Positions 6,154 through 64,000 of a stretch of DNA of 64,000 nt are shown in pieces. Source of the stretch: Hysterangium stoloniferum (lineage: Eukaryota; Basidiomycota; Agaricomycetes; Hysterangiales; Hysterangiaceae). The stretch lies in contig WHVD01000002.1 in assembly GCA_015178975.1 (NCBI GenBank), forward strand, positions 1 to 64,000, given 5' to 3'. Below the pieces are notes generated by a model. The model was not told the origin of the DNA and ran no database searches. It saw only the letters and a program-made list of their open reading frames with translations. How positions within the stretch are numbered: the stretch's first letter is position 1; every line of letters starts with the position of its first letter. Position numbers and translations under genes: made by a program.

Positions 6154-8110
6154 TTACTTGTTTGCCTCCAGGACCTGCACTTCCAACTCTTGAGCTTCAG
6201 TGTATTTTCCCAGATTCCGCAATGTGTCTGCCAAGTTTCCCATAACCCAGAATATATCTGGATGTTCTGGGCCAAGCAAATGCTTGTATGCATCCAGGGC
6301 TTGTACTTCCAGCTCTTGAGCTTGAGTGTATTTTCCTAGATTCTGCAATGTGCATGCCAAATTTACAATGGCATTTAACATGTCTGGATGTTCTGGGCCA
6401 AGTAAATGCTTGTATGCATCCAGGGCCTGTACTTCCAGCTCTTGAGCTTCAGTGTATTTTCCTTGATTCCGCAATGTGCATGCCAAATTTACCATGGCCT
6501 TTAATGTATATGGATGTTCTGGGCCCAGGAATTGCTTGTGTGCCTCCAGGACCTGCACTTCCAACTCCTGAGCTTCAGTGTATTTTCCCAGATTCCGCAA
6601 TGTGCCTGCCAAGTTTCCCATAGCCCAGAATGTTTCTGGATGTTCTGGGCCAAGCAAATGCTTGTATGTATCCAGGGCCTGTACTTCCAGCTCTTGAGCT
6701 TGAGTGTATTTTCCTAGATTCCGCAATGTGCATGCCAAATTTACCATGGCCTTCGATGTATATGGATGTTCTGGGCCCAGGAATTGCTTGTGTGCCTCCA
6801 GGACCTGCACTTCCAACTCCTGAGCTTCAGTGTATTTTCCCAGATTCCGCAATGTGTCTGCCAAGTTTCCCATAGCCCAGAATGTTTCTGGATGTTCTGG
6901 GCCAAGCAAATGCTTGTATGCATCCAGGGCCTGTACTTCCAACTCTTGAGCTTCAGTGTATTTTCCTAGATTCCACAATGTGCATGCCAAATTTACCATG
7001 GCCTTTAATGTATATGGATGTTCTGGGCCAAGCAAATGCTTGTATGCATCCAGGGCCTGTACTTCCAGCTCTTGAGCTTCAGTGTATTTTCCCAGATTCC
7101 GCAATGTGCCTGCCAAGTTTCCCATAACCCAGAATGTATGTGGATGTTCTGGGCCCAGGAATTGCTTGCATCCCTCCAGGACCTGCACTTCCAGCCCTTG
7201 AGCTTCAGTATATTTTCCCAGATTCCGCAATGTGTCTGCCAAGTTTCCCATAACCCAGAATATATCTGGATGTTCTGGGCCAAGCAAATGCTTGTATGCA
7301 TCCAGGGCATGTACTTCCAGCTCTTGAGCTTGAGTGTATTTTCCTAGATTCTGCAATGTGCATGCCAAATTTACAATGGCATTTAATGTGTCTGGATGTT
7401 CTGGGCCCAAAAATTGCTTGCGTCCCTCCAGGACCTGCACTTCCAGCCCTTGAGCTTCAGTATATTTTCCCAGATACCGCAATGTGCATGCCAAGTTTTC
7501 CATACTCCACAATGTATCTGGATGTTCTGGGCCCAGGAATTGCTTGTGTGCCTCCAGGACCTGCACTTCCAACTCCTGAGCTTCAGTGTATTTTCCCAGA
7601 TTCCGCAATGTGTCTGCCAAGTTTCCCATAGCCCAGAAGGTTTCTGGATGTTCTGGGCCAAGCAAATGCTTGTATGCATCCAGGGCCTGTACTTCCAGCT
7701 CTTGAGCTTCAGTGTATTTTCCTAGATTCCACAATGTGCATGCCAAATTTACCATGGCCTTTAATGTATATGGATGTTCTGGGCCCAGGAATTGCTTGTG
7801 TCCCTCCAGGACCTGCACTCCCAGTTCTTGAGCTTCAGTGTATTTTCCAAGATTCCCCAATGTGCATGCCAAATTTCTCATGGCATTCAATGTATCTGGA
7901 TGTTCTGGGCCTAGGAATTGCTTGCATCCCTCCAGGACCTGCACTTCCAGTTCTTGAGCTTCAGTGTATTTTCCAAGATTCCCCAATGTGCCTGCCAAGT
8001 TTCCCATGGCATTCAATGTATCTGGATGTTCTGGGCCAATTAATTGCTTGTATGCCTCCAGGACCTGTACTTCTAGCTCTTGAGCTTCACTGTATTTTCC
8101 CCACTTTCTC
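6154..8110 (-). repeat. Tandem TPR array of NLR-A, 126-bp units
   Basis: Sixteen in-frame units of 42 codons before the stop. Two unit types recur: VLEAHKQFLGPEHP (or VLEGCKQF) and ALDAYKHLLGPEHP. They often alternate, so parts of the array behave as a 252-bp higher-order repeat. Most differences fall at a few positions (A/G/R/C after LE, D/Y/H/E after HP, W/R/Q before N). Confidence 0.9.
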
Positions 8111-10794
8111 CAAATGTGTGCCATGTATGCCATTATGTACATTGTATGTTGATGCTCTGGACCCAAAATCCATCTTCTGATGGCTAATACCTGTTGACAA
8201 AGTCTGCTAGCATGTTCCCAGTAACAATTCTTGATGAGCTCTGTTACATGAGCACAGTGCTCATCATCAAAGTAGCACAATGCAGCCCCTACACTATAAC
8301 TATAATATGCTGTGACATGGGACAATATCATTCTATCAAAGTGCTGCGAATGCCCAACCAAATATTTATTCACATTGATTGAATTTACAATTAAAGCTCG
8401 TGCTGCAGCCAAATATATTCCCTGCTTCTCATTCACAACTTTGTCTCTGGCCCATATCTGCACTACAGGATGAAGAGACCATGAAAGTCTGGATGGAATA
8501 TGTGATATCAGTGAATAATCACATAGCAATTGCATTGCTGTTCTAAACTTTGTAGGAATCCATTTATAATTTTTGTCACATTTAAGAAACTGAAATGGAA
8601 GATCCTGCTTTGTATTTCTTAACCGGGAATCTTGGATGTACCATTCTGGTGCCTCAGCAGCCCTCTTGAATATTTCCTCCATAATATCTTGGTGATGAAA
8701 AAAGCCCAGCATTTTGAGAAGAAATAATGCATCCTTAGCTACATCTCCCTGAACACTTTTCTTCTCAATCAAATCATATGAGATATTGAGTGTTTCACAG
8801 ATTGTCTGGTTATACAATGAGGCACCCTTATATAAGGGATGATCTCTATGTAGAATTATCTCCTGGTTCTTGAGATAAGTTGACATGTATTCTTCCACTG
8901 TACACAATTTTGTATACAGAGCTGCACCAGCAACATCTATGGCCAAAGGCAAGAAGTCAAGTGCTTCTGCAATGGCCTGCATTTCCCCATTCTCTAACAA
9001 CACATCAGTTTCATCCTCCCTCATTGAGGATTTCATGAGTAATGCAAAGGCATCTTCTTTAGACATGACTTCAAGTTTGAGAGTGCTACCCACAGACTGC
9101 TGTAGATCAGGATTTCTACTTGTGATCAACACATCCAATGAATGTGCTGGAGGGAGGTACTTTGAAACCAGAGTTCCCATGCCATCAGCATTACCAAACA
9201 CAAGCAAGCACTTTCTGCACAGTCCTGCCAGCCATCCTATGATGGCTTCACCTGACTCCTCAATGCCATGAGACTTCATTACAGGATCATGTTTAGAGAT
9301 TTCTGCAAAACTTGTTAGAAGGCTTTCTGCCGTTGTAGCATCAAGCCATAAGATCCTCCAGTAGCTATATGATTATCAGTGTTGTGAGAATTGCAATGTG
9401 TTCAGAGATGATAATGTGTTTACCCACAGCTTAAGATCTGCACACTCTTCAGCGAACTTCAAGGAAATTTGTGTTTTTCCAATACCACCCATGCCATACA
9501 ACAGAAGGTGTTTTCGGCTAGTTGCAGCATTCTCATGAATAAAGAATTTTCTCAACCTGTCCAGGTACATATCTTGACCAGTAAACCTCGGACTGGAGAA
9601 GAGCTTGCGCCTGTAAAATGGACCCTCATGGATATCTGATGGACTGAATAAGAATATATAGTTATAAGTGGAACAGTTACTATACCTTCAGACCGACTAG
9701 GATTTCTTCCATTATCCGGCTCTGATTGGGAAGGATCATTTCCCATACATTGCAACAATGAGACCACTACATCGAAACCATCCTCTTCAACCGTGGAAAA
9801 TTTTACCATATCCATGTGATTCTTGCTCAGCCCAATAGCTTCAGCATTCCGTGCACCCGGAACAACAGCAGAGGACTTTGGCACAATCTGACTCCATGTG
9901 AGCTGATAAGAACCAAATAGTGCTGTTCAAGGCACTTACGAAGCTAGATGTGCCGTCATGCAGCACAGTTTGATATATCTCGTAAAGAAACTTTGTATTG
10001 AAAGAAGCACTGATCCCGTTGTACAGGGATAACTGTATCTCCAACATGTTTGAGTTGCTTGCCAAGTCGCGTAACAATGCGTGAACAGTATTCTCTTTAA
10101 CTGGGAGAAGTACACGGAGCATCTGGGAGGCAGAGAGTGCAACGGCTGTCCCTTGGTGCGGCGTCCCAAAGAACAGTATCCCAATTGTGGAGAGCATTAT
10201 TCGTTTGTGATAAGAGAGGTGAGAATTATTGCATTGATTGGCATAAATCAACGCCTACGGGGATACATCCCAGTTTGAACTCAGCGAGGAGTGCAGCGAA
10301 ATTAAACACATACAAATTTAAGAATAATCCCACCTAAGCTGTGGGCAAGAAAAATGATGGGACGGGTCTAGCCATAATTCAATAAGCATCCTCCATCAAT
10401 AGCATAAACTCACGGTAGTAGTTGTTCTGGTCCTAAACAGAGCGAGTCGCGAAATAAAATTCTGTGCATGACCATACAATGTCTCCTCTATCTTGCTTGA
10501 TTCACTACCGGTGGATGCGTCATAGCCGTATGTAGCAATTCTGGCGTGAGGCAATCGCTGGGGCAATAAATCTTTCAGCCAGAGTATTCCGTTTTCGGCA
10601 GTCCAGGACTGTTCGCGGTGACCATCTAGGCCGTGGATGGCGACAATGCTGTTATAAGTGTCATTAGGGGAGAAGGGGAGGAAACTTGTTCATAGGACAC
10701 ACTCGATATTCGGGGAGATGCCCTCGACAAGCACTTTGATGCCTAGTCTAGAGTCTGGGCGATCACGAGTATTGTTCACAATTTCTGGTTCCAT
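6154..10794 (-). CDS. NLR-A: alpha/beta-hydrolase - NB-ARC - TPR STAND receptor
   Basis: Putative fungal NLR. Seven exons fit splice signals: 10794-10703, 10648-10414, 10367-10314, 10254-9940, 9887-9686, 9635-9428 and 9364-6154. They sum to 4317 nt, a multiple of three (1438 aa). Start MEPEIVNNTRD is shared with NLR-C. Order: a SesB/lipase-like alpha/beta hydrolase domain (IVAIHGLDGH, nucleophile motif AHSLGG at ~aa 115, FFGTPHQG), NB-ARC with P-loop GMGGIGKT (~aa 348), Walker B, sensor-like VLITSRNPD and a GLPL-type FLPLA motif, then a linker and 16 TPR units of 42 aa ending in TAA. Odd: the Walker B core reads LLVFGNAD where the two paralogues have LLVFDNAD, and the stop falls inside a repeat. 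In this family the hydrolase or partner domain is the presumed effector and the TPRs the sensor; function here is inferred, and the protein may be ATPase-impaired. Confidence 0.85.
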
Positions 10795-10960
10795 CTGAAG
10801 ACCAAGTGTTCAAGATACTACTCCCTTTATCTGAAAGGAGATGAAGCTACCTAAATTTCAAGTTTTTCCGTCGAATAGCTTCAAGGATGCTGCGGGTCGT
10901 AGAGAGATAACACGTGTAGCTGTGACCTTGTCACGTCTTCACTGCACTGCATCGTATAAT
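10795..10960. promoter_or_regulatory. Candidate bidirectional promoter between NLR-A and upstream ORF Y-A
   Basis: 166 bp separate the NLR-A start (minus) and the ATG of a divergent small exon at 10961. It holds an E-box palindrome CACGTG (10911-10916) and an interrupted palindrome GTGACCTTGTCAC (10922-10934). Both are kept in the NLR-C promoter (58077-58100) despite sequence drift around them. The whole block is deleted in NLR-B. No TATA box was recognised. Confidence 0.45.
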
Positions 10961-11660
10961 ATGACTGGGAAACACGCACAGGAGCACTCTGAGGTATGTC
11001 GATCATCGCATTTAACCATTTGATGTTTGCATTTCTTATATGATTTGTTTTTGTCTACGGGAATGGCTGTTTGCCTGCTATTCCTCTCCTTGATGTTGAA
11101 GTATACTAAGCACTCAACAAGATGTTACCAGGATTGTGAGGCTCGGGCTCCATCTATCTGACCTTGATTGCTCTTGACACACTAGGCTTCGCGTCCCATA
11201 CCGTCATCTACCATTAGCCTTCATGCTTGTTCGTCCACCACCCGTTTCCTGTCACCCAGGTATCCTCTGCACTCCATTCTCCTTTGGCGTACATGGCTAA
11301 CGTTGTGGCTCTATTATATCTGGGTTCCAGCGACTTCTCTTCTGGCTTCATCCCCGCTGATACCCCCATTTCCCGCTCTTGTTCCATATTTGCCGCTTCG
11401 GTCGGGGGTTCGCACGGTGTGCATGCTCCAACCACAGCCCACAACATCATCCTTCAAGCCTCCATCAGCTTCTTGACAAATAAAACACATTTGCTACGCT
11501 ACATTCCCCATCAATCCAACTCTGCATCACGTTCGCCACTACTCAGTCTCTTCAGCGATGAACAAGCCTCGACCTGGAGGCATATTGAGACGTGTGCTGC
11601 TATATTGACATCTATGATACCTCACATAGGGTCGAATAAGACACTGTGAGAACCCTTGGT
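10961..11660 (+). CDS. Divergent ORF Y-A, conserved upstream of the NLRs, structure unresolved
   Basis: Starts with a short exon MTGKHAQEHSE followed by a strong donor GAG|GTATGT at about 10994. The same exon is found upstream of NLR-C (MTGTHAQEHSE, with synonymous codon changes) and, without its ATG, upstream of NLR-B. Downstream an open frame (11227-11649, FVHHPFPVTQ... ending IGSNKTL) is shared by all three copies, with frameshifts in B. I could not connect the exons into one continuous reading frame and do not recognise the product; it could be a short spliced gene, a decayed gene, or a transcribed non-coding leader. Confidence 0.3.
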
Positions 11661-12960
11661 GAGCATGGGGTCCATATCAGATTCTGAATGGACAATGCTG
11701 ACGTGCGTGTACACCACACCCAGATATGGGGTATCTTGAGTGTTTTTTCAACGTGTAGTATGTATGCGGTTGTTTCGACTCAAAACTGTGATCCTAATTT
11801 GTGTTGCTTTCTTTGAAGTATTTACCCTCAGTCCCACGGGTCGCCTTCAGTTGTCATGATGAATACATTTCGTTCGTACGACTTTTATTTATTTGAAGGG
11901 TTATCATGGTGACAACACAACGCCACACTACATATCTAACTGAGACGGAAACGGAAACCAGTAATCAGCTCGGGATTAGAAGCGCGAAAGGTGGGGACAA
12001 TAATGGAGAGGGGTAGGATAAACGGTCCAGGCAGAGACTCGCATACATTCATCCCTTTCTCCATAGCACCCAATCGAGATCAACTCAGACGTTCTTGTTA
12101 GTCTTGATATCCTAAGCACCCTCCCCTCGTCGCCCTCAATCCAACCTCTGGACTCAAGCCCCTGGTTTGCCTTGGCAGTTACTTCCTTACCACGTCTGCG
12201 AAGGAGACCGCGCCGAGGTTTTGGTTGTGCACTAGTCTTCGACGACGGCAGCTACCGATTTGGTGTGAAACATGAGGCCCTCACGGCTGGAGATTAGCGT
12301 GCCTGGAAGGATTTGAAAGCGAGAGCGGTGTGTCCGTCCGATGGAGGACAGTGTGATTGGAGCCTTGGGGACAGCATGGTGTGGACGGGACGCATTATTA
12401 CAAGTGTGTCGGGAAGGGAGGATGGCGCCCCGTACATTTCAGGCATGACGCCTGTCCTGCAGCGGCTGCCCTTGCACCGAGCTTGCAACGCGGGTTACTG
12501 TTTGTGCGAATTACTCAATGGAATTAGGAGGATGGGAATGAAAACGAGTGCAAGTAGGGCTGTAGTCGTCTATTGCACTGTAGTGGTAATCCAGGTCCTG
12601 AAAGATAGCACAATCAGTATCATAACGTAACACATCAGAAAAGCAAACGAGAAGAGAAAGGGAAGGGAGCGAAGCTCACATCAATCTCCTCGCCGCATAG
12701 ATCTCATCCCGCCAGAGCCACGTTCCACACATGCCAGTCATTGAAAGATGATGTAGTCTCTACTCTCTTAAACTCTTCAAACCCCAACCATTCTTTCCAG
12801 AAAGCCACCTGCCATCGCCATTCAGAGTAGGTAGTGCTGTCTCGGCACAAAACAAGAGTGGCAAAAGACCCGGAGGAATGGCAAAGATTACTGGGGGAAG
12901 AAAGGGATTACGTCCCTGGACACTAAGCCCGGACAACGAACTTCCTTTTTCGTTTAGCAT
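11660..12960 (-). other. Conserved upstream block X-A (unknown, possibly coding)
   Basis: Homologous to X-B (16100-17250) and X-C (56030-57150) in the same orientation relative to the NLR. On the strand of the NLR it contains an open stretch QGRNPFLPPVIFAIPPG...LPTLNGDG (12960-12760), a likely intron ending CTTTCAG, and a frame that in copies B and C reads as a hydrophobic helix TTTLLALIFIPILLIP; in A the codon before it is a TAG stop. Homology with copy B ends near 12921. No known family recognised; it may be a membrane-protein gene in decay. Confidence 0.35.
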
Positions 12961-12999
12961 CGGAAATTAAGTCGGCAGCAATGACGGACTTTGAGTTTA

Positions 13000-13900: not shown

Positions 13901-13904
13901 CGAT

Positions 13905-15697: not shown

Positions 15698-16099
15698 CTG
15701 CTATCGGAATTTACAACGGACTTCCGAGTTCAAGCTGACACAGACTAGAAAATTGAGAGTTAGTGTTACAGTGACAATTATCGGATGGATCGTGGAATAG
15801 ACCGAGAAGGAGTAATTATATCACGGGAGTGCTTTTACTTATTATCGCCAAGGGTAGAGACAGAAGAACAATGTTACATATTGATACGAGCTCCGGCGTG
15901 ATGAAAATTAAATTCAAGTTGGTGAATTATTTTATAGAAATGTGTGCACCAGTTTTTGGTCACAGTCACGAAGTCTATCGTCACGGATTTCGAAACTGTG
16001 CAATCAATGCCTCATCACATAGGAATGAGAAAGAGCAGGGAATTCATAACATAGTAGGTGGTAGTGATTGTCGTGGCCATCGTGTGCATGCGTTTATCG

Positions 16100-18156: not shown

Positions 18157-21100
18157 ACTCGTGGTCGCCCAGACTCTGGACTAGGCATCAAAGTGCTTGT
18201 CGAGGGCATCTCCCCGAATATCGAGTGTGTCCTATGAACACGTTTCCTTCCCTTCTCCCCTAATGACACTCCTAACAGCATTGTCGCCATCCACGGCCTA
18301 GATGGACACCGCGAACAGTCCTGGACTGCCGAAAACGGAATACTCTGGCTGAAAGACCTATTGCCCCAGCGATTGCCTCATGCCAGAATTACTACATACG
18401 GTTATGACACATCCACCAGTAGTGAATTAAACAAGATAGAGGAGACATTGTATGGTCATGCACAGAATTTTATTTCGCGACTCGCTTTGCTTAGGAACAA
18501 AACAACTACTACCGTAAGTTTCTTTTATTGATGGAGAATACTTATTGAGTTATGGCTAGACACGTCCCATCATTTTCCTTGCCCACAGCCTAGGTGGAAT
18601 TATTCTCAAATTTGTACGTGTTTAATTTCGATGCACTTCTTGCTGAGTTCAAACTGGGATGTGTCCCCGTAGGCGTTGATTCATGCCAATCAATGCAACG
18701 ATTCTCACCTCTCTTATCACAAACGAATAATGCTCTCTACAATTGGGATATTGTTCTTCGGGACCCCGCACCAAGGAACAGCCGTTGCACTATCTGCCTC
18801 CCAAATGCTCCGTGTACTTCTCCCAGTTAAAGAGAATACTGCTCATGCATTGTTACGCGACTTGGCAAGCAACTCAAACATGTTGGAGATACAGTTATCT
18901 CTGTACAACGGGATCAGTGCTTCTTTCACTACAAAGTTTCTTTACGAGGTATATCAAACTGTGCTTCATGACGGCACATCTAGCTTCGTAAGTACCTTGA
19001 ACAGCACTATTTGGTTCTTATCAGCTCACACGGGTCAGATTGTGCCAAAGTCCTCTGCTGTTGTTCCGGGTGCACGGAATGCTGAAGCTATTGGGCTGAA
19101 CAAGAATCACATGGATATGGTAAAATTTTCCACGGTTGAAGAGGATGGTTTCGATGTAGTGGTCTCATTGTTGCAATGTATGGGAAATGAGCCTTCCGAA
19201 TCAGAGCCGGACAATGGAAGAAATCTTAGTCGGTCTGAAGGTATAGTAACTGTTCCGCTTGTAAAACTACATATTCTATTTAGTCCATCAGATATCCACG
19301 AGGCTCCATCTTACAGATGGAAGCTCTCGTCCAGTCCGAGGTTCACTGGTCAAGACATATACCTGGAGAGGTTGAGAACATTCTTTTTTCATGAGACTAC
19401 TGCAAGTAGCACAAAACACTTCTTGTTGTATGGCATGGGTGGTATTGGAAAAACACAAATTTCCTTGAAGTTTGCTGAGGAGTGTGCAGATCTTAAGCTG
19501 TGGGTAAACTCATTATTATCTCGGAACACAATGCATTTCTCACAATACTGATAATTATCTAGCTACTGGAGGATATTATGGCTTGATGCTACAACAGCAG
19601 ACACCCTTCTAACAAGTTTTACAAAAATCTCTAAACATGATCCTGTAATGAAATCTCTCAAGATTGAGGAGTCATGCGAAGCTAGCATAGAACGCCTGGC
19701 TGGACTAGGCAGAAAGTGCTTGCTTGTTTTTGATAATGCTGATGGCATGACTACTTTGGTGTCAAAACTTCTCCCTCCAGCACATTCATTGGCTGTGTTA
19801 ATCACAAGTAGAAATCCTGATCTACAGCAGTCTGTGGGTAGCATGCTCAATCTTGAAGTGATGTCTACAGAAGATGCCCTGTCACTGCTCAAGAAATCCT
19901 TATTGAGGGAGGGCAAAACTGATGTGTTGTTAGAGAATGGGGAATTGCAGGCCATTGCAGAAGCACTTGACTTCTTGCCTTTGGCCCTAGATGTTGCTGG
20001 TGCAGCTCTATATACAAAATTGTGTACAGTGGAAGAGTACATGTCAACATATCTCAAGAACCAGAAGATAATTCTACATAGAGATCATCCTTTGTATAAG
20101 GGTGCCTCATTGTATAACCAGACAATTTGTGAAACATTGAATATCTCATATGATTTGATAAAGAAGAAAAGTTTTCAGGAAGATACAGCTAACAATGCAT
20201 TATTTCTTCTCAAAATGCTGGGCTTTTTTCATCATCAAAATATTATGGAGGAAATATTCAAGAGAGCTGCTGAGGCACCAGAATGGTATATCCAAGATTC
20301 CCGGTTAAGAAATACGAAGCAGGATCTTCCAGTTCAGTTCCTGAAATGTGACAAAAGCAATAAGTGGATCCCCACAAGGTTCAGAACAGCAATGCAACTG
20401 CTATGTGATTATTCACTGGTATCACCAATTCCATCTAGACTTTCATGGTCTATTCATCCGGTAGTGCAGGTATGGGTAAGAGACAAAGTAGTGAATGAAA
20501 ACCAGGCAATATGTTTTGGTGCAGTGCGAGCTATAATTGTAAATTCAATCAATGTCAATGAAGATTTGGCAGTGCATTCCCAGCACTTTTATAAAGTGAT
20601 ATTGCCCCATATGATAGCATATTATAGTTATAATGCAGAGTTTGAATTATCCTACTTTGATGATGAGCACTGTGCTCATTTAACAGGGTTCATTAAGAAT
20701 TGTTACTGGGAACATGCTAGAAGATGTTGCCAACAAGTGTTGGCCATGAGAAAATGGATCCTGGGTCCAGAGCATTATCATTCAATGTGGATGATGGGAG
20801 ACATGGCATACATTTGGAGAGAACAGGGAAAGTATCACAAGGCATGGGAATTGGCATGGAAAGTCTTGGAGGCATGCAAGATGATGGATGACCCAAAACA
20901 TGCATATACATGGTGGGCTATGAGAAGCTTGTCAGACATATTGAGGTATATGGGAAAATATACTGAAGCTCAAGAGCTGGAATTGCAGGTCCTGGAGGCA
21001 CACAAGCAATCCCTTGGCCCAGAACATCCAGATACATTAAAAGACATGGCAAGTTTAGCATGCACATTGTGGAATGTTGGAAAATACACTGAAGCTCAAG

Positions 21101-22314
21101 AGCTGCAAGTGCAGGTCCTGGAGGCACACAAGGAATTCCTTGGCCCACAACATCCAGATACATTGAATGCCAAGGCAAATTTGGCATGTACATTGCAGAA
21201 TGTTGGAAAATACACTGAAGCTCAAGAGCTGGAAGTGCAGGTCCTGGAGGCACACAAGGAATTCCTTGGCCCACAACATCCAGATACATTGAATGCCATG
21301 GCAAATTTGGCATGTACATTGCGGAATGTTGGAAAATACACTGAAGCTCAAGAGCTGGAAGTGCAGGTCCTGGAGGCACACAAGGAATTCCTTGGCCCAC
21401 AACATCCAGATACATTGAAAGCCAAGGCAAATTTGGCATGTACATTGCAGAATGTTGGAAAATACACTGAAGCTCAAGAGCTGGAAGTGCAGGTCCTGGA
21501 GGCACACAAGGAATTCCTTGGCCCACAACATCCAGATACATTGAATGCCAAGGCAAATTTGGCATGTACATTGCAGAATGTTGGAAAATACACTGAAGCT
21601 CAAGAGCTGGAAGTGCAGGTCCTGGAGGCACACAAGGAATTCCTTGGCCCACAACATCCAGATACATTGAATGCCATGGCAAATTTGGCATGTACATTGC
21701 AGAATGTTGGAAAATACACTGAAGCTCAAGAGCTGGAAGTGCAGGTCCTGGAGGCACACAAGGAATTCCTTGGCCCACAACATCCAGATACATTGAATGC
21801 CATGGCAAATTTGGCATGTACATTGCAGAATGTTGGAAAATACACTGAAGCTCAAGAGCTGGAAGTGCAGGTCCTGGAGGCACACAAGGAATTCCTTGGC
21901 CCACAACATCCAGATACATTGAAAGCCAAGGCAAATTTGGCATGTACATTGCGGAATGTTGGAAAATATGCTGAAGCTCAAGAGCTGGAAGTGCAGGTCC
22001 TGGAGGCACACAAGGAATTCCTTGGCCCACAACATTCACATACATTGAAAGCCATGGCAAATTTGGGATGCACATTGTGTAATCTTGGAAAATACACTGA
22101 AGCTCAAGAGCTGCAAGTGCAGGTCTTAGAAGCAAGGAAGCAATTCCTTGGCCCAGAACATCCAGATTCATTGAAAGACATGGCAAATTTGGCATACACA
22201 TTGTGTAATCTTGGAAAACACACTGAAGCTGAAGAGCTGCAAGTTGTTATGCTTGAGCGTGAGCCTACAGGGAGACATCCAGGAACAACCCATGGATGCT
22301 CCAAGGACAGGTAA
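18157..22314 (+). CDS. NLR-B: alpha/beta-hydrolase - NB-ARC - TPR receptor lacking its start and promoter
   Basis: Paralogue of NLR-A with the same exon pattern: (exon 1 remnant to 18224), 18279-18513, 18560-18613, 18673-18987, 19039-19240, 19292-19499, 19563-22314. Exons 2-6 have the same lengths as in A and C (235, 54, 315, 202, 208 nt) and all are open. Motifs: IVAIHGLDGH, AHSLGG, FFGTPHQG, P-loop GMGGIGKT, intact Walker B LLVFDNADG, VLITSRNPD, FLPLALDVAGAAL, then 10-11 TPRs and a distinct tail ending GTTHGCSKDR. Odd: about 198 bp present in NLR-C (58043-58240) are missing at 18155/18156, removing the promoter, the ATG and the first eight codons. The next in-frame ATG is inside the hydrolase domain (SQMLRVLL). 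It may be silent, or use a new upstream exon that I cannot see. The intron at 18988-19038 is 51 nt, so its retention would keep frame. Confidence 0.8.
20950..22250 (+). repeat. Tandem TPR array of NLR-B, 126-bp units
   Basis: Ten full 42-codon units and a final diverged one. The central seven (about 21090-21960) are almost identical (KEFLGPQHPDTLNAMANLA), differing at single sites such as N/K and M/K. The outer units are more diverged, as expected for arrays homogenised by unequal exchange in the middle. Confidence 0.92.
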
Positions 22315-22560
22315 TACTTGGCTTCAGATTTCATGCTGTTCCCTCACACAATCACTGGGTCCAACTTCAATCATAGGAGGGTGGATTGGAGCAACCTGGG
22401 CAGACCAATAATACACTCTGAGTCCAAGTCAGGATCTCCAGGGGCTTCAAGAATTCACTGGTTCAAGGTGAGAGAAATGCACTGACATAGAGAGAAGGGT
22501 AGACATTCTGTGGGTACCATGTTGGTGCTAAGTTGAATTTCTGATGAAAATGTAGGTACA
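22315..22560. other. 3' flank of NLR-B, LTR-like remnant
   Basis: No ORF. The start (ACTTGGCTTCAGATTTCATG...CCCTCACAC) weakly resembles the gypsy LTR at 2061-2780, so this may be an old LTR remnant next to the pol fragment that follows. Confidence 0.3.
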
Positions 22561-23069
22561 CCAAATCAGCTCATCTTGTCATAGCATTGGGTTTCTAAGG
22601 TGGCCATGGTGGCAACAAATTCTCCTGTTAAATGTAGACATAGATTTGGACAATCAGGCTTGCTGATGCCTGAGGAGTTTCATGGCTGAATACTATTCCG
22701 AATTTGTGTCATCCATTACAACATCAATGAGAATACTAGCATCTTCAAGGTAATGATGGCAACGTTTGAAGGGTTCAAATATTGCAAGTAATTTCTTCTC
22801 ATCAATGTTGTAGTTGAGTTCACAACCTGTAAGAGTGTGAGATAAACAATGCCCTGGGTGGACTTCTCCATCTGTGTCATAAATGGAGAGTATGGTGGCA
22901 CTGCCATACTCTAATGCATCCATTTCTCTTATGAGTGGAACATCTGGTGTCCAGTGAGAGAGTATAGGGGCAGATCTAAAAGGATCTTTCAAAGATTGAA
23001 ATGACAGATGACACTCATTAGTAAAATTCCAAGGGGCATATTTATGAGTATGGTGAGTAAGAGGAATGG
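22560..23069 (-). pseudogene. Ty3/gypsy pol fragment (RT end and RNase H)
   Basis: Minus-strand reading gives ISSIPLTHHTHKYAPWNF, SFQSLKDPFRSAPILSHWTP and SHTLTGCELNYNIDEKKLLA, then FKRCHHYLEDA. These match the RT-connection/RNase H of basidiomycete gypsy elements. Past a TGA the similarity continues (LLRHQQA, STFNRRI) to about 22560. Catalytic residues are partly lost (METD-type motif reads REMDALEYG). A clear relic. Confidence 0.75.
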
Positions 23070-23733
23070 AGGATATCTGAAAACTATTGAGTATACCAAA
23101 TTCTAATATACTAAAGGTCATTTAAACATCTGGGATGTGATTCAAACATAATTTGGTTTTTAAAACTTTCAAAAAGTTTTAAACTCTCTTGTACATTAAA
23201 AACTAAAGAATCTTTCCAGACACAAGTAGACAATAAAAAAAGTTAGTAGTTTGAAACACTAATACTTTTAAAAAATAGATACCTTTAGATAGTCTATTCC
23301 ATGCATATGTATGTAAATCATTGGTACCTCTAAATACATATGTATTACTTTGGAATGGATCTGTTAATCTGAACAGATTTCTACTTGATTCAACATACTC
23401 AGAATATATAGGTGATTTCACCCAACTAAGAAGGCCATAGGATGAAAAATTTCCAATGACATCTCACATATTTTACTACAGTTTAGCTTTTAAAAAACAA
23501 ATTACTAACAACAGTATTAGCAAGTATTTACATAACTTGGAAAACTATATACAATAGGTTCTATTAATTGACTCTGAATTGTTTAGGATGTAATATGGAG
23601 AATTGTTTCTCATGGTTGGTGGCTAACAATATAATAGTCTCAGAATAGATATTGCTATTTAAAGATGAAGTTTTGTAGCAATATTGCTTTTATTAGTAAA
23701 CATTTGCTATTATAATGATTATAGACAACCTCC
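23070..23733. mobile_element. Non-autonomous element, 664 bp (copy 1)
   Basis: Highly similar to 46038-46681 over its whole length (AGGATATCTGAAAAC...CAACCTCC). AT-rich, no coding capacity. It lies at the broken end of the gypsy pol fragment. The copy in the LTR at 46 kb defines the ends; here the right flank carries no matching target duplication. Confidence 0.65.
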
Positions 23734-23770
23734 TTAATGAGAGTCTTGATTCTCAAATTGAAAAAATGTA

Positions 23771-24585
23771 ATGAGCATACTACTGTTACAATCTCCCATG
23801 GTAAATGAGGTTTTCAAAGAATATGTTGACATCATGAAAGAGTTCAGTATACCTGATGTTCTGGACACTAAATACCACAATCTTTTAGAAGCCATTAGAC
23901 TATCTTTTGAATCTGCTAATACTTTATATATTTTTTGTGATAATGTAATTCTTTGGTCTATTGGAGGGGACTTGTAGAAATAATATATATGGAAAATGTA
24001 AAGTATATTTCTCACTTTCCTTTAAAATCAAGTTACTATGCTCAGATACTCTCAAGAATGATGATATTGCAACTCAAAACACTCCTTACTTTTCTTATAA
24101 AATTTCATTATCTGAAGTACCTATCAAAAACATAATAAAATTCCTAAGAGAAACTATTTGTGATGAAATTATCTTACATGATATAGATATCTCCCAAGAT
24201 ACATATATCCTATGTTACTACTAGAAAAGATGTTCTCAAGCATATGTATACTACTGTAAATCATGGAATAAAGGCAGAAGATATTGTCAATGATAGAAAA
24301 AAGGTTGGGGGCAATTGTATATCCTTCTTTAATGATGACCATTCATGCAAAATTAAAGTATATAATAAATTTGTACAAATGCCACAAAGCTGTGATGTGA
24401 TGACTACTCTAGGATCTAGAATCCACAATTTATATGTTGATCCTACTGAGTCCATGCCACAATCACTAGAAAGATTAAAGAATGTGGGAATGACAAGGAT
24501 TGAAATTGATTTTTATGGTAAAAAAGTATTTTTTAAAGCATGGTATATAGACAACTTTATCAGTATTAGAAACAATTTTTAATGG
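23771..24585 (+). pseudogene. Broken AT-rich ORF, replication-initiator-like (tentative)
   Basis: Three plus-strand pieces in successive frames (23771-23977, 23961-24224, 24244-24582) look like one protein broken by two shifts. Recognisable patches are DEIILHDIDIS followed after a shift by ISYVTTRKDVLKHM, then CKIKVYNKFVQMPQSCDV and GMTRIEIDFYGKKVF. An '(I)HDIDI..D' strand plus a 'KVYNK...RIE' pair recalls Rep proteins of rolling-circle replicons, but I do not recognise a specific family. Base composition is much more AT-rich than the NLR genes, suggesting foreign or plasmid-like origin. Function unassigned. Confidence 0.35.
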
Positions 24586-48815: not shown

Positions 48816-49204
48816 AACGTTTTGAGCCTTACTTCCCTAAATCGCGACAAAATACCTTAATCCCTCCACTTCATCATCTGCCGATGATGCGTTAGATGGC
48901 CACGCCACAAACTCGCATCTATCGCGTTCGAGTATCTATTTCCTGTATTCCGTGATAACTGTTGTCGAAGTTACTTTCCAGAATTGGAAGAGAGAATTGG
49001 AAGAGATGATAGCCCGCGTTCCGACTTGGTTTCATCGAGCACTGAACCGTTTGATATCATGGCCATCATTTCATAGTTGACCGTTTTGTCGATCCGGTGT
49101 TCGGTTCCTGCCTTGTACACCCCGGTCTTATTAGTAACATCACCTCCAAGGAATAAAATGAGTCGCGATCCCTAATGAATAAACGATGTATCAATAAAAT
49201 CGAA

Positions 49205-53036: not shown

Positions 53037-53039
53037 CCC

Positions 53040-57150: not shown

Positions 57151-57159
57151 TGACAACTG

Positions 57160-58046: not shown

Positions 58047-58217
58047 ATAAATGATGCAGTGCAGTGCTGTGAAGATGTGACAAGGTCACAGCTACACGTG
58101 TTATCTCTCTACAACCCCGCAGCATCCTTGAAGCCATTCGACGGAAAAACTTGAAATTTGGGTAGCTTCATCTCCTTTCAGATAAAGGGAGTAGTATCTT
58201 GAACACTTGGTCTTCAG
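58047..58217. promoter_or_regulatory. Candidate bidirectional promoter of NLR-C and Y-C
   Basis: 171 bp with GTGACAAGGTCAC (58077-58089) and the E-box CACGTG (58095-58100), both also present upstream of NLR-A. A purine-rich GATAAAGGGAG is near the NLR start. Missing entirely from NLR-B. Confidence 0.45.
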
Positions 58218-61200
58218 ATGGAACCAGAAATTGTGAACAATACTCGTGATCGCCCAGACTCTGGACTAGGCATCAAAGTGCTTGTCGAGGGCATATCCCC
58301 GAATATCGAGTGTGTCCTATGAACAAGTTTCCTCCCCCTCTCTCCTAATGACACTTCTAACAGCATTGTCGCCATCCACGGCCTAGATGGACACCGCGAA
58401 CAGTCCTGGACTGCCGAAAACGGAATACTCTGGCTTAAAGACCTATTGCCCCAGCGATTGCCTCACGCCAGAATTGCTACATACGGCTATGACGCATCCA
58501 CCGGTAGTGAATCAAACAAGATAGACGAGACATTGTATGGTCATGCACAGAATTTTATTTCGCGACTCGCTCTGCTTAGGACCAAAACAACTACTATAGT
58601 GAGTTTCTTTTGTTGATGGAGAATGCTTATTGAATTATAGCTAGACACGTCCGATCATCTTTCTTGCCCACAGCTTAGGCGGCATTATTCTTAAATTTGT
58701 ACGTATTTAATTTTGAAACACTTCGTGCTGAGTTCAAACTGGGATGTTTCCCCGTAGGCCTTGATTCATGCCAATCAATGTAACAATTCTCACCTCTCTT
58801 ATCACAAACGAATAATACGCTCTACAATTGGGATACTGTTCTTTGGGACGCCGCACCAAGGGACAGCCGTTGTGCTCTCTGCCTCCCAGATGCTGCGTGT
58901 ACTTCTACCAGTTAAAGAGAATACTGTTCACGCATTGTTACGCGACTTGGCAAGCAACTCAAACATGTTGGAGATACAGTTATCTCTGTACAACGGGATC
59001 AGTGCTTCTTTCACTACAAAGTTTCTGTACGAGGTATATCAAACTGTGCTTCATGACGGCACATCTAGCTTCGTAAGTGCCTTGAACAGCACTATTTGGT
59101 TCTTATCAGCTCACACGGGGTCAGATTGTGTCAAAGTCCTCTGCTGTTGTTCCAGGTGCACGGAATGCTGAAGCTATTGGCCTGAACAAGAATCACATGG
59201 ATATGGTAAAGTTTTCCTCGGTTGAAGAGGATGATTTTGATGTAGTGGTCTCATTGTTGCAAACTATGGGAATTCATCCTTCCCAATCAGAGCCTGAAAA
59301 TGGAAGAAATCTTAGTCGGTCTGAAGGTATAGTTACTCTTCCGGTTGTAAGACTATATATTCTTATTTAGTCTATCAGATATCCACGAAGGTGCATCTTA
59401 CAGGCGCAAGCTCTTCTCCAGTCCGACGTTCACTGGTCAAGATATGTACCTGGAGAGGCTGAGAACATTCTTTTTTCATGAGAATACTGGAAGTGGCCGA
59501 AAGCACTTCCTGTTGTATGGCATGGGTGGTATTGGAAAGACGCAAATTTCCTTGAAGTTTGCTGAGGAGTGTGCAGATCGTAAGCTGTGGGTAACTTCAT
59601 TATTATCTCGGAACACATGTTAATTCTCACAACACTGATAATGATCTAGCTACTGGAGAATATTATGGCTTGATGCTACAACAGCAGAAAGCCTTCGAAC
59701 AAGTTTTGCAGAAATTTCTAAATATGATTCTGTAATGAATTCTCACAGGATTGAGGAGTCAGGTGAAGCCATTATAGCATGGCTGGCAGGACTAGGCAGA
59801 AAGTGCTTGCTCGTTTTTGATAATGCTGATGGCATGACTACTTTGGTTTCAAAATACCTTCCTCCTGCACATTCATTGGATGTGTTGATCACAAGTAGAA
59901 ATCCTGATCTACAGCGGTCTGGGGGTAGCACTCTCAAGCTTGAAGTGATGTCTAAAGAAGATGCCTTTTCACTGCTTAAGAAATCCTCAATGAGGGAGGG
60001 CAAAACTGATGTGTTAGAGGATGGGCAACTCCAAGCCATTGCAGAAGCACTTGACTTCTTACCTTTGGCCCTAGATGTTGCTGGTGCAGCTATACATACA
60101 AAATTGTGTACAGTGGAAGAGTATATGTCAACATATCTCAAGAACCAGCAGATAATTCTACATGGAGATCATCCTTTATATAAGGGTGCCTCATTGTATG
60201 ACCAGACAATTTGTGAAACACTGAATATCTCATATGATTTGATAGAGAAGAAAAGTGTTCAGGGAGATGTAGCTAAGGATGCATTATTTCTCCTCAAAAT
60301 GCTGGGCTTTTTTCATCATCAAAATATTATGGAGGAGATATTCAAGAGGGCTGCTGAGGCACCAGAATGGTACATCCAAGATCCCCAGTTAAGAAATACA
60401 AAGCAGGATCTTCCATTTCAGTTCCTGAAATGTGATAAAAGTAATAAATGGATCCCCACAACAGTCAGAGCAGCAATGCAACTGCTATGTGATTATTCAC
60501 TGGTATCACCTATTCCATCTAGACTTTCATGGTCCATTCATCCTGTAGTACAGATATGGGCAAGAGACAAAGTAGTGAATGAGAACCAGGCAATATATTT
60601 TGGTGCAGTGCGAGCTATAATTGTAAATTCAATCAATGTCAGCAAAGATTTGGCAGTGCATTCCCAGCACTTTTATAAAGTGGTATTGCCCCATATGATG
60701 GCATATTATAGTTATAAAGCAGAGTTTGAATTATCCTACTATGATGATGAGCACTGTGCTCATTTAACAGGGTTCATTAAGAATTGTTACTGGGAACATG
60801 CTAGAAGATGTTGCCAACAAGTGTTGGCCATGAGAAAATGGATCCTGGGTCCAGAGCATTGTCATTCAATGCAGATGATGGGAGACATGGTATACATTTG
60901 GAGAGAACAGGGAAAATATCAGAAGGCACAGGAGTTGGCACTGTATGTCTTGGAGGCATGCAAGATGATGTATGACCCAGAACATCCAGATACATTGGAA
61001 GCCAAGGCAAATTTGGCATGTACATTGCGGAATGTTGGAAAGTACACTGAAGCTCAAGAGCTGCAAGTGCAGGTCCTAGAGGCACACAAGCAATCCCTTG
61101 GCCCAGAACATCCAGATACATTGAAAGACATGACAAGTTTAGCATGCACATTGTGGATTCTGGGAAAATACACAGAAGCTCAAGAGCTGGAAATGCAGGT

Positions 61201-64000
61201 CCTGGAGGCATGCAAGCAATTCCTTGGCCCACAACATCCAGATACACTGGAAGCCATGGCAAATTTGGCATGTATATTGCAGAATGTTGGAAAATACACT
61301 GAAGCTCAAGAGCTGCAAGTGCAGGTCCTGGAGGCACACAAGCAATTCCTTGGCCCAGAACATCCAGATACATTGAAAACCATGGCAAATTTGGCATGTA
61401 TATTGCAGAATGTTGGAAAATACACTGAAGGTCAAGAGCTGCAAGTGCAGGTCCTGGAGGCACACAAGCAATTCCTTGGCCCAGAACATCCAGATACATT
61501 GAAAACCATGGCAAATTTGGCATGTATATTGTGGAATGTTGGAAAATACACTGAAGCTCAAGAGCTGCAAGTGCAGGTCCTGGAGGCACACAAGGAATTC
61601 CTTGGCCCAGAACATCCCCATGCATTGGAAGCCATGGCAAGTTTGGCATGCACATTGTGGAGTGTGGGAAAATACACTGAAGCTCAAGAGCTGCAAGTGC
61701 AGGTCCTGGAGGCACACAAGCAATCCCTTGGCCCAGAACATCCCCATACATTGAAAGCCATGGCAAGTTTGGCATGCACATTGCAGAGTGTTGGAAAATA
61801 CACTGAAGCTCAAGAGCTGGAAATGCAGGTCCTGGAGGCACACAAGCAATCCCTTGGCCCAGAACATCCCCATACATTGAAAGCCATGGCAAGTTTAGCA
61901 TGCACATTGTGGATTCTGGGAAAATACACAGAAGCTCAAGAGCTAGAAGTGCAGGTTCTGGAGGCACACAAGCAATTCCTTGGCCTAGAACATCCAGATA
62001 CATTGGAAGCCATGGCAAATTTGGCATGTACATTGCGGAATGTTGGAAAATACACTGAAGCTCAAGAGCTGGAAGTGCAGGTCCTGGAGGCACACAAGCA
62101 ATCCCTTGGCCCAGAACATCCCCATACATTGAAAGCCATGGCAAGTTTAGCATGCACATTGTGGATTCTGGGAAAATACACAGAAGCTCAAGAGCTAGAA
62201 GTGCAGGTCCTGGAGGCACACAAGCAATCCCTTGGCCCAGACCATCCAGATACATTGAATGCCATGGCAAATTTGGGATGCACATTGTGGAGTGTTGGAA
62301 AATACACAGAAGCTCAAGAGGTGGAAGTGCAGGTCCTGGAGGTACACAAGCAATTCCTTGGCCCAGAACATCCCCATACATTGGAAGCCATGGCAAGTTT
62401 GGCATGCACATTGCAGAGTGTTGGAAAATACACTGAAGCTCAAGAGCTGAAAATGCAGGTCCTGGAGGCACACAAGCAATCCCTTGGCCCAGACCATCCA
62501 GATTCATTGAAAGCCATGGCAAGTTTAGCACGCACATTGTGGATTCTGGGAAAATACACAGAAGCTCAAGAGCTAGAAGTGCAGGTTCTGGAGGCACACA
62601 AGCAATTCCTTGGCCTAGAACATCCAGATACATTGGAAGCCATGGCAAATTTGGCATGTACATTGCGGAATGTTGGAAAATACACTGAAGCTCAAGAGCT
62701 GGAAGTGCAGGTCCTGGAGGCACGCAAGCAATTCCTTGGCCCAGAACATCCAGATACATTGAATGCCATGGCAAATCTGGGACGCACATTGCAAAATGTT
62801 GGAAAATACACAGAAGCTCAAGAGCTGGAAGTGCAGGTCCTGGAGGCACACAAGGAATTCCTTGGCTCACAACATCCAGATACATTGAATGCCAGGGCAA
62901 ATTTGGGACGCACATTGCGAAATGTTGGAAAATACACAAAAGCTCAAGAGCTGGAAGTGCAGGTCCTGGAGGCACGCAAGCAATTCCTTGGCCCAGAACA
63001 TCCACATACATTGAATGCCATGGCAAATTTGGGATGCACATTGCGAAATGTTGGAAAATACACAGAAGCTCAAGAGCTGGAAGTGCAGGTCCTGGAGGCA
63101 CGCAAGCAATTCCTTGGCCTTGAACATCCAGATACATTGGAAGCCATGGCAAATTTGGCATGTACATTGCAGAATGTTGGAAAATACACTGAAGCTCAAG
63201 AGCTGGAAGTGCAGGTCCTGGAGGCACGCAAGCAATTCCTTGGCCCAGAACATCCAGATACACTGAATGCCATGGCAAATTTGGGATGCACATTGCGGAA
63301 TATTGGAAAATACACTGAGGCTCAAGAGCTGCAAGTGCAGGTCCTGGAGGCATGCAAGCAATTCCTTGGCCCAGAACATCCAGATACATTGAATGCCATG
63401 GAAAATCTGGGACGCACATTGCAAAATGTTGGAAAATACACAGAAGCTCAAGAGCTGGAAGTGCAGGTCCTGGAGACACGCAAGGAATTCCTTGGCTCAC
63501 AACATCCAGATACATTGAATGCCAAGGGAAATTTGGCATCTACATTGCAGACTGTTGGAAAATATTTTGAAGCTCAAGAGCTGCAAGTGCAGGTCCTGGA
63601 GGCACACAAGCAATCTCTTGGCCCAGAACATCCCCATACATTGAAAGACATGGCACGTTTAGCATGCACATTGCGAATTGTTGGAAAATACACAGAAGCT
63701 CAAGAGCTGGAAGTGCAGGTCCTGGAGGCATGCAAGGAATTCCTTGGCTCACAACATCCAGATTCATTGAATGCCATGGCAAATTTGGGACACACATTGC
63801 AAAATGTTGGAAAATACACAGAAGCTCAAGAGCTGGAAGTGCAGGTCCTGGAGGCACGCAAGGAATTCCTTGGCTCACAACATCCAGATACATTGAATGC
63901 CATGGCAAATTTGGGACGCACATTGCGAAATGTTGGAAAATACACAAAAGCTCAAGAGCTGGAAGTGCAGGTCCTGGAGGCACACAAGCAATTCCTTGGC
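58218..64000 (+). CDS. NLR-C: alpha/beta-hydrolase - NB-ARC - TPR receptor, runs off the window
   Basis: The most intact paralogue. Exons: 58218-58309, 58364-58598, 58645-58698, 58758-59072, ~59125-59326, 59379-59586, 59650 to beyond 64000, with exon lengths equal to NLR-A. Start MEPEIVNN; hydrolase motifs IVAIHGLDGH, AHSLGG and FFGTPHQG; P-loop GMGGIGKT; Walker B LLVFDNADG; VLITSRNPD; FLPLALDVAGAA. From ~60880 to the window end the frame is open through about 24-25 TPR units of 42 aa (GKYTEAQELEVQVLEAHK, LGPEHPDTLEAMANLACTL). No in-frame stop was found where I read it. Consensus introns of 46-63 bp. Like other fungal STAND NTPases it is expected to be cytoplasmic, switching on NTP binding after ligand contact with the repeats; ligand unknown. 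Confidence 0.87.
60880..64000 (+). repeat. Tandem TPR array of NLR-C, at least 24 units of 126 bp
   Basis: Near-identical units with recurring variants: KQSLGPEHPHTLKAM, KQFLGPEHPDTLEAM and KEFLGSQHPDTLNAM. A block with the variants WILGKYTEAQ and QSVGKYTEAQ (about 61600-62560) is partly repeated, indicating multi-unit duplications. The array continues past the window. The complementary strand is open for 912 codons as a composition effect. Confidence 0.92.

What the first reader, a model, noticed from the sequence alone, without database searches (positions are those of the whole stretch)
6154..64000. NLR TPR arrays with extreme internal identity and variable copy number (16+, 11, 24+ units)
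Units of exactly 126 bp are nearly identical within each gene and vary at few codons, the hallmark of repeats kept alike by recombination and of fungal recognition receptors (the high-internal-conservation repeat NLRs of allorecognition). Copy number differs strongly among paralogues.
Basis: partly seen in the sequence, partly recalled or inferred. Interest (0 to 1): 0.75.

Follow-up and report, generated by a model that had tools for sequence, protein, structure and literature searches.

The report
Fungal immune-receptor repeats with CpG scar
Three fungal immune-receptor-like genes carry long repeat arrays whose variable sites match the expected binding groove; unexpectedly, the sensor half of each gene has lost nearly all its CpG letters while the effector half has not, a pattern that looks like DNA-methylation mutation concentrated on the recognition end.

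Summary
The arrays are real: three paralogous NLR-like genes (SesB-like hydrolase, NB-ARC, 42-residue TPRs) with exact 126-bp units: A 16 before a stop, B 11, C 30 (running past the window). Only B is extremely uniform (93% nt; A and C about 87%). A has a stop and altered Walker B; B lacks the start exon; C is intact over 2,054 codons.

This is a known kind: high-internal-conservation fungal NLRs (Dyrka 2014). Replacements concentrate at five canonical TPR groove positions (pN/pS>1 in 22 of 23 arrays; other codons in 1 of 23); hydrolase and NB-ARC are constrained.

New here: a sharp intragenic CpG boundary. Median CpG o/e is 0.86 in the head, 0.08 in NB-ARC, 0.05 in the array (22 loci, 20 sharp); eight Cpn60/TCP1-family genes score 0.84-1.15. 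Remaining CpGs sit mainly in Arg codons at hypervariable positions beside their deamination products (R/H/C, R/Q/W) and differ between close units about 13-20 times as often as other C/G (7 times within the same codons). A DNMT5-like gene is present. Best reading: the recognition half lies in a CpG-methylation-type mutational domain that adds to selection and unit turnover. Methylation itself was not measured.

The parts
58218..64000 (+). Gene C, apparently intact: SesB-like hydrolase / NB-ARC / TPR NLR, 2,054 aa over 7 exons (58218-58309, 58364-58598, 58645-58698, 58758-59072, 59125-59326, 59379-59586, 59650-); stop ends at contig 64708, outside the window
   Evidence: splicing by GT-AG inspection, one open frame; DUF676 21.1 bits (cut-off 20.3), NB-ARC 30 bits (cut-off 23.5)
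60911..64000 (+). TPR array C, 24 units in the window, 30 in all
18279..22314 (+). Gene B, exons 2-7; about 194 bp including the ATG of exon 1 is missing relative to C
   Evidence: the alignment of B and C upstream regions leaves out about C 58044-58237
20827..22212 (+). TPR array B, 11 units, the most uniform of the three
   Evidence: AlphaFold2 gives 22 alternating helices, mean pLDDT 87.8
6154..10794 (-). Gene A: exons 10703-10794, 10414-10648, 10314-10367, 9940-10254, 9686-9887, 9428-9635, then last exon 6154-9364; Walker B reads LVFGNAD, whereas the other 20 loci in which my scan found the motif have F-D-N
6157..8100 (-). TPR array A before the stop, 16 units
5593..6156 (-). Decayed units of array A behind the stop
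   Evidence: 3 units with stops, 2 register breaks in the array
9591..10794 (-). CpG-normal head of gene A
   Evidence: o/e 0.69 over 9428-10794; change point 1,490 bp before the array
18279..19337 (+). CpG-normal head of gene B
   Evidence: o/e 0.70 over 18279-19499; change point 1,490 bp before the array
58218..59609 (+). CpG-normal head of gene C
   Evidence: o/e 0.75 over 58218-59586; change point 1,302 bp before the array
3001..9590 (.). CpG-poor domain of A (NB-ARC, array, 3' flank)
   Evidence: 1-kb windows 0.07-0.31
19338..24000 (.). CpG-poor domain of B (NB-ARC, array, 3' flank)
   Evidence: 1-kb windows 0.00-0.33
59610..64000 (.). CpG-poor domain of C; continues outside the window
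   Evidence: 1-kb windows 0.02-0.20 from 60001 on

Best explanation
A, B and C are paralogous fungal NLRs: an N-terminal SesB-like lipase/esterase effector, an NB-ARC switch and a TPR solenoid as sensor. Shown by sequence: units turn over inside arrays, replacements concentrate at the TPR groove positions, and the rest of the protein is constrained. Inferred: the groove binds a variable partner (non-self or a modified host protein), NB-ARC oligomerises and the hydrolase acts as cell-death effector. Also shown: the gene is split into two compositional halves. Promoter and hydrolase exons keep normal CpG; from about the P-loop exon through the array and 1-2 kb beyond, CpG is almost gone, and CpGs still present in the arrays differ between close units 13-20 times as often as other C/G. 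Inferred: the sensor half is, or long was, CpG-methylated (a DNMT5-like gene is present), either because tandem repeats attract methylation that spreads about 1.5 kb each way, or because the gene body is methylated behind a protected 5' end. Deamination of methyl-CpG then feeds R to H/C and R to Q/W changes into the variable codons 17 and 40; selection and unit recombination sort and spread them.
For: Architecture; P-loop GMGG[IV]GKT found in 20 of 22 loci and AHSLGG elbow in 20 of 22. Selection: groove positions 30,33,37,40,41 pN/pS>1 in 22 of 23 arrays, other codons in 1 of 23; above random 5-codon sets at p<0.05 in 20 of 23; with CpG-type changes removed still >1 in 21 of 23. Body dN/dS among A, B, C: hydrolase 0.20-0.23, NB-ARC and following part 0.27-0.36. 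CpG boundary: medians head 0.86, NB-ARC 0.08, array 0.05, first kb of 3' flank 0.08; sharp in 20 of 22 loci by a criterion set afterwards; Wilcoxon p 4.8e-7, loci not independent (change points). Not codon choice alone: 0 of 1000 synonymous resamplings with head codon usage reach the low CpG count in any of six tail segments. Controls: eight Cpn60/TCP1-family genes 0.84-1.15 (8 of the 12 places), RPB2 windows 0.87-1.13. TpG+CpA o/e 1.47-1.79 in tails, 1.19-1.24 in heads. CpG change in unit pairs differing by up to 3 nt: 61/442 against 166/24163; inside hypervariable codons (nt 1-2) 53/360 against 42/2080; outside them 8/66 against 118/20861. Per array (pairs up to 6 nt; 16 of 23 arrays have enough CpG): higher in all 15 with a computable ratio, median 13.5, and 8/20 against 0/1700 in B; CpG-creating changes not raised, 0.0150 against 0.0187. 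CpGs: 140 of 208 lie in six hypervariable codons; all 9 sites where CpG is the array consensus are codons 17, 40 or 41. Arg is CGN in 138 of 356 at codons 17,37,40,41, in 24 of 531 elsewhere. DNMT5-like: E 6.6e-79 to PDB 7r76.
Against: No methylation data were seen. A 2022 review reports no CG gene-body methylation in a study of 40 fungal genomes and CG methylation mainly at repeats (PMC9246332, passages); a 2026 review calls gene-body methylation largely lost in fungi, with exceptions (PMC13297926, passages). So a methylated coding half would be unusual; a 2025 rust paper does report gene-body CpG methylation (PMC12129025, abstract and passages). Among variants seen in a single unit, none was C>T at a consensus CpG (0 of 270 unit-sites): at those sites the TpG and CpA forms are shared by 2 to 14 units, apart from one single-unit case that gives a stop. 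The CpG differences may therefore be standing variants spread by unit exchange rather than fresh mutations. Loci with a short array (L043, about 6 units) and a short divergent one (L044, 7 units, 69% alike) show the same depletion, so long uniform arrays are not needed. Codons 30 and 33, clearly variable, show no CpG-type differences: CpG-type changes make up only 17% of replacement differences at codon 40 and 32% at codon 17. I chose the loci from matches to array B and several pairs are near-copies. Two of the three window genes look broken.
Confidence: 0.7

Rival explanations
1. A RIP-like process that senses repeats and mutates CpG at meiosis or in the dikaryon, leaking into the flanks, made the CpG-poor domain; no standing methylation of a gene body is involved.
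For: The depleted domain surrounds the array, about 1-2 kb on either side. CpG-biased, RIP-like hypermutation, more frequent near repeats, is reported for the basidiomycete Rhizoctonia solani AG8 (PMC4014442, passages). RIP as mutation supply for repeat NLRs was proposed for Podospora (PMC1805685, passages).
Against: Little CpA preference among singleton variants: C>T per 1000 unit-sites CpA 10.5, CpC 9.0, CpT 8.9. G+C is 0.40 in the NB-ARC parts and 0.45-0.47 in the arrays against 0.44-0.45 in the heads, so no general fall. The hydrolase heads of A, B and C are also duplicated (amino-acid identity 0.92-0.94) but spared. Short arrays L043 and L044 lie in depleted domains too.
Confidence: 0.2
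2. The hypervariable sites reflect mutation bias and relaxed constraint, not diversifying selection on a binding groove.
For: CpG sites differ more between close units; at codon 17 the excess disappears without CpG-type changes (0.97); A has a stop and a Walker B change, B lacks its start exon.
Against: With CpG-type changes removed, groove positions keep median pN/pS 1.58 (>1 in 21 of 23), codon 30 alone 1.97; codons outside 17,30,33,37,40,41 have 0.52. Hydrolase and NB-ARC dN/dS 0.20-0.36. 91 units in one open frame without stop or indel at C157.
Confidence: 0.15
3. Ordinary high-internal-conservation NLRs with nothing special about CpG: the boundary is codon usage or amino-acid composition.
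For: TPR units have few obligatory CpG contexts; absolute counts are low.
Against: The non-repeat NB-ARC part is as depleted (0.08-0.12) and so is the 3' flank (0.07 and 0.00 in the two kilobases 22001-24000); synonymous resampling expects 43.8-46.6 CpGs in the NB-ARC part and 4-6 are seen; GpC is not lowered.
Confidence: 0.05
4. Array lengths are assembly artefacts (collapsed or expanded repeats).
For: Tandem arrays are hard to assemble; no reads were available.
Against: Units are mostly distinct: 29 of 30 in C, 10 of 11 in B, 19 of 19 in A, 78 of 91 in C157; frames stay open across the arrays of B and C.
Confidence: 0.05

Closest known systems
[quoted passage not shown] 2014
   Same: Same domain order, same TPR family (PF13374), unit-number variation, positive selection on the concave face (PMC4986451, sections 17 and 20 read)
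   Different: Here a head-to-tail CpG boundary, CpG-type variation at codons 17 and 40, arrays of up to 91 units; no isolates compared. The TPR protein the paper chose as having the most highly conserved motifs had 21
HET-D/HET-E/HNWD family of Podospora with RIP as proposed mutation supply (Paoletti et al. 2007)
   Different: WD40 not TPR; there the footprint is CpA-type RIP in pseudogenes; here CpG-type, also in a gene with an open frame
CpG-biased hypermutation of Rhizoctonia solani AG8
   Same: CpG to TpG bias reaching coding regions, more near repeats (PMC4014442, passages)
   Different: There spread across genes in general; here confined to one half of one gene class, with nine control genes near 1
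DNMT5 CG maintenance methylation of fungi
   Same: A DNMT5-like gene is in this genome (that PDB 7r76 'Rad8' is Cryptococcus DNMT5 is recalled)
   Different: Known targets are repeats and transposons (PMC9246332, passages); a methylated NLR sensor half is not described in the passages I saw
Kinesin light chain TPR domain
   Same: Best sequence match in PDB (7ai4, E 7.4e-30) and among fold matches (6fv0, TM 0.75 over the target)
   Different: Cargo adaptor without NB-ARC (recalled)

Membership tests
High-internal-conservation fungal NLR (Dyrka et al. 2014) | N-terminal effector domain (here SesB-like alpha/beta hydrolase) | tested here: met
   DUF676 putative serine esterase 21.1 bits, cut-off 20.3; AHSLGG elbow in 20 of 22 loci. 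The margin is thin; no PDB match at E<=1
High-internal-conservation fungal NLR (Dyrka et al. 2014) | NB-ARC nucleotide-binding domain | tested here: met
   Gene C 30 bits, cut-off 23.5; P-loop in 20 of 22 loci, Walker B in 21 of 22; gene A has Walker B D to G
High-internal-conservation fungal NLR (Dyrka et al. 2014) | C-terminal WD, ANK or TPR repeats | tested here: met
   TPR_10 E 5.7e-174, 2e-113, 3.6e-252
High-internal-conservation fungal NLR (Dyrka et al. 2014) | Repeats at least 85% alike over at least 100 residues | tested here: met
   Own count of identity to consensus, not T-REKS: runs of 10 (A), 11 (B), 29 (C) units at >=85%; 22 of 23 arrays have a run of 3 or more, L011 none
High-internal-conservation fungal NLR (Dyrka et al. 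2014) | Positive selection at concave-face positions | tested here: met
   pN/pS counts, not HyPhy; 22 of 23 arrays, L018 0.93; groove positions taken from recalled canonical TPR numbering and helix limits; no geometry computed
High-internal-conservation fungal NLR (Dyrka et al. 2014) | Repeat-number polymorphism among isolates | not testable with these tools
   One genome only; near-copy pair L012/L020 has 14 against 11 units at 98.6% identity over 6.5 kb but allele or duplicate is unresolved
High-internal-conservation fungal NLR (Dyrka et al. 2014) | Role in heterokaryon incompatibility or cell death | not testable with these tools
   No expression or genetic data
RIP (ascomycete type) | C to T bias in CpA | tested here: not met
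   CpA 10.5 against CpC 9.0 and CpT 8.9 per 1000; synonymous only 11.9, 9.7, 11.1
RIP (ascomycete type) | Falling G+C in the affected stretch | tested here: inconclusive
   NB-ARC parts 0.40, arrays 0.45-0.47, heads 0.44-0.45
CpG methylation domain | CpG depletion with TpG/CpA excess | tested here: met
CpG methylation domain | Raised CpG mutation rate | tested here: inconclusive
   Raised in close unit pairs; no single-unit C>T at consensus CpG, 0 of 270, the variants there being shared by several units
CpG methylation domain | 5-methylcytosine present | not testable with these tools
   No reads or bisulfite data

The most novel reading that the evidence does not exclude
Methylation-steered receptor diversification: the fungus keeps the effector half of its NLR genes outside, and the sensor half inside, a CpG-methylated domain, and hypermutable methyl-CpGs survive mainly in the recognition codons, where deamination toggles Arg to His/Cys or Gln/Trp; the methylated half is thus a mutation engine aimed at the binding groove, in working receptor genes rather than in silenced transposons.
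Probability: 0.24. Interest if true: 0.85.

Novelty: new variant of a known kind. Interest (0 to 1): 0.6.

Why it matters
[quoted passage not shown] A sharp CpG boundary between effector and sensor, with surviving CpGs in recognition codons, makes the question directly testable from long reads. It also warns that part of the hypervariability in such receptors may be mutational, so selection tests on them need CpG-aware models.

Tried and rejected
Rejected: RIP of the CpA type. Rejected: CpG loss as plain codon choice. Rejected as sole cause: CpG-type change for the hypervariable sites. L012/L020 as a clean allelic pair: in the stretches fetched downstream only about 0.8 kb match, at 85-87%, and of two probes from C218 one hits a high-copy dispersed sequence and the other a smaller dispersed family, so I call them near-copies only. 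A higher-order period in arrays: of seven arrays tested, lag profiles are nearly flat in most; L022 alternates and L014 peaks at lag 7; B falls off steadily with distance. Organism: not identified; the 5S search was too weak to place it. A NACHT-NLR control for CpG was wanted but could not be fetched.

My first exon models for intron 5 and intron 6 were wrong and were corrected; one search failed on a file name.

The groove set (codons 30,33,37,40,41) came from recalled TPR numbering, but I had already seen per-site variability of all arrays except C157, and C157's residue counts, before the formal test. Of 520 units in 23 arrays, 481 without stops and above a score of 60 were used; 39 were left out. 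The arrays are those I chose to fetch from the matches; several further matches there were not fetched.

Papers: PMC4986451 sections 17 and 20 and passages; PMC12258605, PMC13297926, PMC4014442, PMC1805685, PMC9246332, PMC12129025 passages; others search listing only. That I found no report of such a CpG boundary in fungal NLRs rests on the searches in an open-access library only.
Full report
WHAT IS THERE. Its short introns (46-63 bp in the final model of gene C, from the exon limits) and the NLR types point to a filamentous fungus (inference). Three paralogous genes carry arrays of exactly 126-bp units. Spliced by eye, gene C reads 2,054 codons without a stop: SesB-like alpha/beta hydrolase (DUF676 21.1 bits against a cut-off of 20.3), NB-ARC (30 against 23.5), 30 TPR units. 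Gene A is alike but ends at a TAA at 6154 after 16 units, with three decayed units behind it and LVFGNAD in place of LVFDNAD; of the 21 loci where my motif scan found Walker B, only A lacks the aspartate. Gene B has 11 units but about 194 bp holding the ATG are missing. The loci are parts of segmental duplications (A 5745-12918 against C 56100-63267, 86.5%).

HOW UNIFORM. Mean pairwise nt identity is 0.933 in B, 0.869 in A, 0.875 in C. From the matches to array B I fetched 19 further arrays and the rest of array C, and one very large array at C157: 23 arrays, 520 units, 11 to 91 per array. The choice was mine and not complete. The C157 array has 91 units, all spaced 126 bp, no stop; one search gives the open frame touching its NB-ARC match as 4,320 codons. 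Units are closer within than between arrays (0.849 against 0.694). In the near-copy pair L012/L020 (98.6% over 6.5 kb) the first and last units differ by 1 nt each, while the inner units have turned over and number 12 against 9.

SELECTION. AlphaFold2 on array B with three rows gives 11 helix pairs at mean pLDDT 87.8, helix B at unit positions 3-21 and helix A at about 26-42; Foldseek finds kinesin light chain and other TPR superhelices. By recalled canonical TPR numbering the groove positions 2, 5, 9, 12, 13 are unit codons 30, 33, 37, 40, 41; I computed no geometry. Their pN/pS exceeds 1 in 22 of 23 arrays (L018 0.93); that of all other codons in 1 of 23 (L014); they beat random five-codon sets at p<0.05 in 20 of 23. 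In hydrolase and NB-ARC, dN/dS among A, B and C is 0.20-0.23 and 0.27-0.36. This repeats, in other loci, what Dyrka et al. reported for Podospora Pa_2_10340 (PMC4986451).

THE CpG BOUNDARY. CpG observed/expected is 0.69-0.75 in the hydrolase/P-loop exons of A, B and C, but 0.08-0.12 in the NB-ARC part of the last exon, 0.03-0.12 in the arrays, and 0.07 and 0.00 in the two kilobases 22001-24000 behind B. TpG plus CpA is 1.47-1.79 in the tails against 1.19-1.24 in the heads, and GpC is not lowered. Over 22 loci the medians are head 0.86, NB-ARC 0.08, array 0.05, first 3' kb 0.08; 20 of 22 meet a sharp criterion that I set afterwards. The exceptions are L011, a decayed locus poor in CpG in its head too (0.30), and L025 (NB-ARC 0.43). 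Change points lie 524 to 2,043 bp before the array, L011 being the 524. With head codon usage 43.8-46.6 CpGs would be expected in each NB-ARC part against 4-6 seen; none of 1000 resamplings reached the observed count in any of six segments. Eight Cpn60/TCP1-family genes, of 12 places, score 0.84-1.15; RPB2 windows 0.87-1.13, and the DNMT5-like locus 0.67-1.28 in seven of eight windows, 0.25 in the first. Helitrons score 0.22-0.27 and the Ty3-like first two kilobases 1.12. A locus with a short array (L043, about 6 units) and one with a short divergent array (L044, 7 units at 69%) show the depletion as well.

CpGs IN RECOGNITION CODONS. Of 208 CpGs left in 481 units, 140 lie in codons 17, 30, 33, 37, 40, 41; 65 at codon 17 and 45 at codon 40 start an Arg CGN codon. 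All 9 places where CpG is the array consensus are codons 17, 40 or 41. Arg is CGN in 138 of 356 cases at codons 17, 37, 40, 41 and in 24 of 531 elsewhere (units are not independent). At codon 17 CGC, CAC, TGC coexist in many arrays (R, H, C), at codon 40 CGG, CAG, TGG or CGT, CAT, TGT: the set that deamination of a methyl-CpG on either strand would give.

ARE THEY HOT? In unit pairs differing by up to 3 nt, C>T or G>A at CpG is 61/442 against 166/24163 elsewhere; in nt 1-2 of the hypervariable codons 53/360 against 42/2080; outside those codons 8/66 against 118/20861. With pairs up to 6 nt, 16 of 23 arrays hold enough CpG: the ratio is above 1 in all 15 where it can be computed (median 13.5), and in B it is 8/20 against 0/1700; changes that would create CpG are not raised (0.0150 against 0.0187). 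Against this, no variant confined to one unit was C>T at a consensus CpG (0 of 270 unit-sites): the TpG and CpA forms there are shared by 2 to 14 units, apart from one single-unit case that gives a stop. Old variants spread by unit exchange could therefore produce part of the excess. Removing CpG-type changes lowers codon 17 from 2.23 to 0.97 but leaves the groove set at 1.58, above 1 in 21 of 23 arrays. So CpG supply may add to, and does not explain away, the groove signal.

MECHANISM. A DNMT5-like gene is present (frame in L045; DNA_methylase 39 bits; E 6.6e-79 to PDB 7r76, listed as Rad8, which I recall as Cryptococcus DNMT5). The simplest account is CpG methylation over NB-ARC and array with a protected 5' end. 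A RIP-like CpG process that leaks from repeats is the main rival; CpA-type RIP is not supported. Reviews hold that fungi lack, or have largely lost, CG gene-body methylation, with a recent rust report to the contrary. I saw no methylation data.

VERDICT. The new element is the bipartite CpG regime. Whether it is exploited for diversification or merely tolerated is open.

Noticed in passing
window 26729-32329 and 40381-44932: Helitron with PIF1 helicase and Helitron_like_N domains in one 1,866-codon frame, and a second, frame-broken copy at about 85% identity; both CpG-poor (0.22, 0.27)
   Followed up: partly
window 1-2000 (-): Ty3-like gag and aspartyl-protease frames with normal CpG (1.12), so probably a young insertion next to the CpG-poor flank of gene A
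   Followed up: no
window 60801-63539 (-) and 20918-22246 (-): Antisense frames open for 912 and 442 codons across arrays C and B; probably a by-product of the repeated unit lacking reverse-strand stops
   Followed up: no
G000:C157:173251-184716 (L029, L030): 91 consecutive TPR units, all 126 bp apart, no stop; recurring groove words such as RTNLSN, WASWSK, REVVYN
   Followed up: partly
L012 and L020: Near-copy loci, 98.6% alike over 6.5 kb, with 14 and 11 units; end units conserved, inner units turned over; allele or recent duplicate not resolved
   Followed up: partly
L011: Decayed NLR-TPR locus (6 of 14 units with stops) that is CpG-poor in its head as well, unlike the other loci
   Followed up: no
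window 13548-16104 and 48817-51334: A further duplicated block at about 85% identity
   Followed up: no
window 27033-27177 and 40568-40727; 32647-33632; 33662-34627: 15-bp minisatellite (CAGGTGGCTCTGCTG) in both Helitron copies; a 15/21-bp CCATCCACCGCGCAC array; a CT-rich 67-bp array
   Followed up: no
window 2061-2780 and L025:3294-4013: 720 bp shared at 98.3% with another NLR locus, likely a young mobile element piece
   Followed up: no
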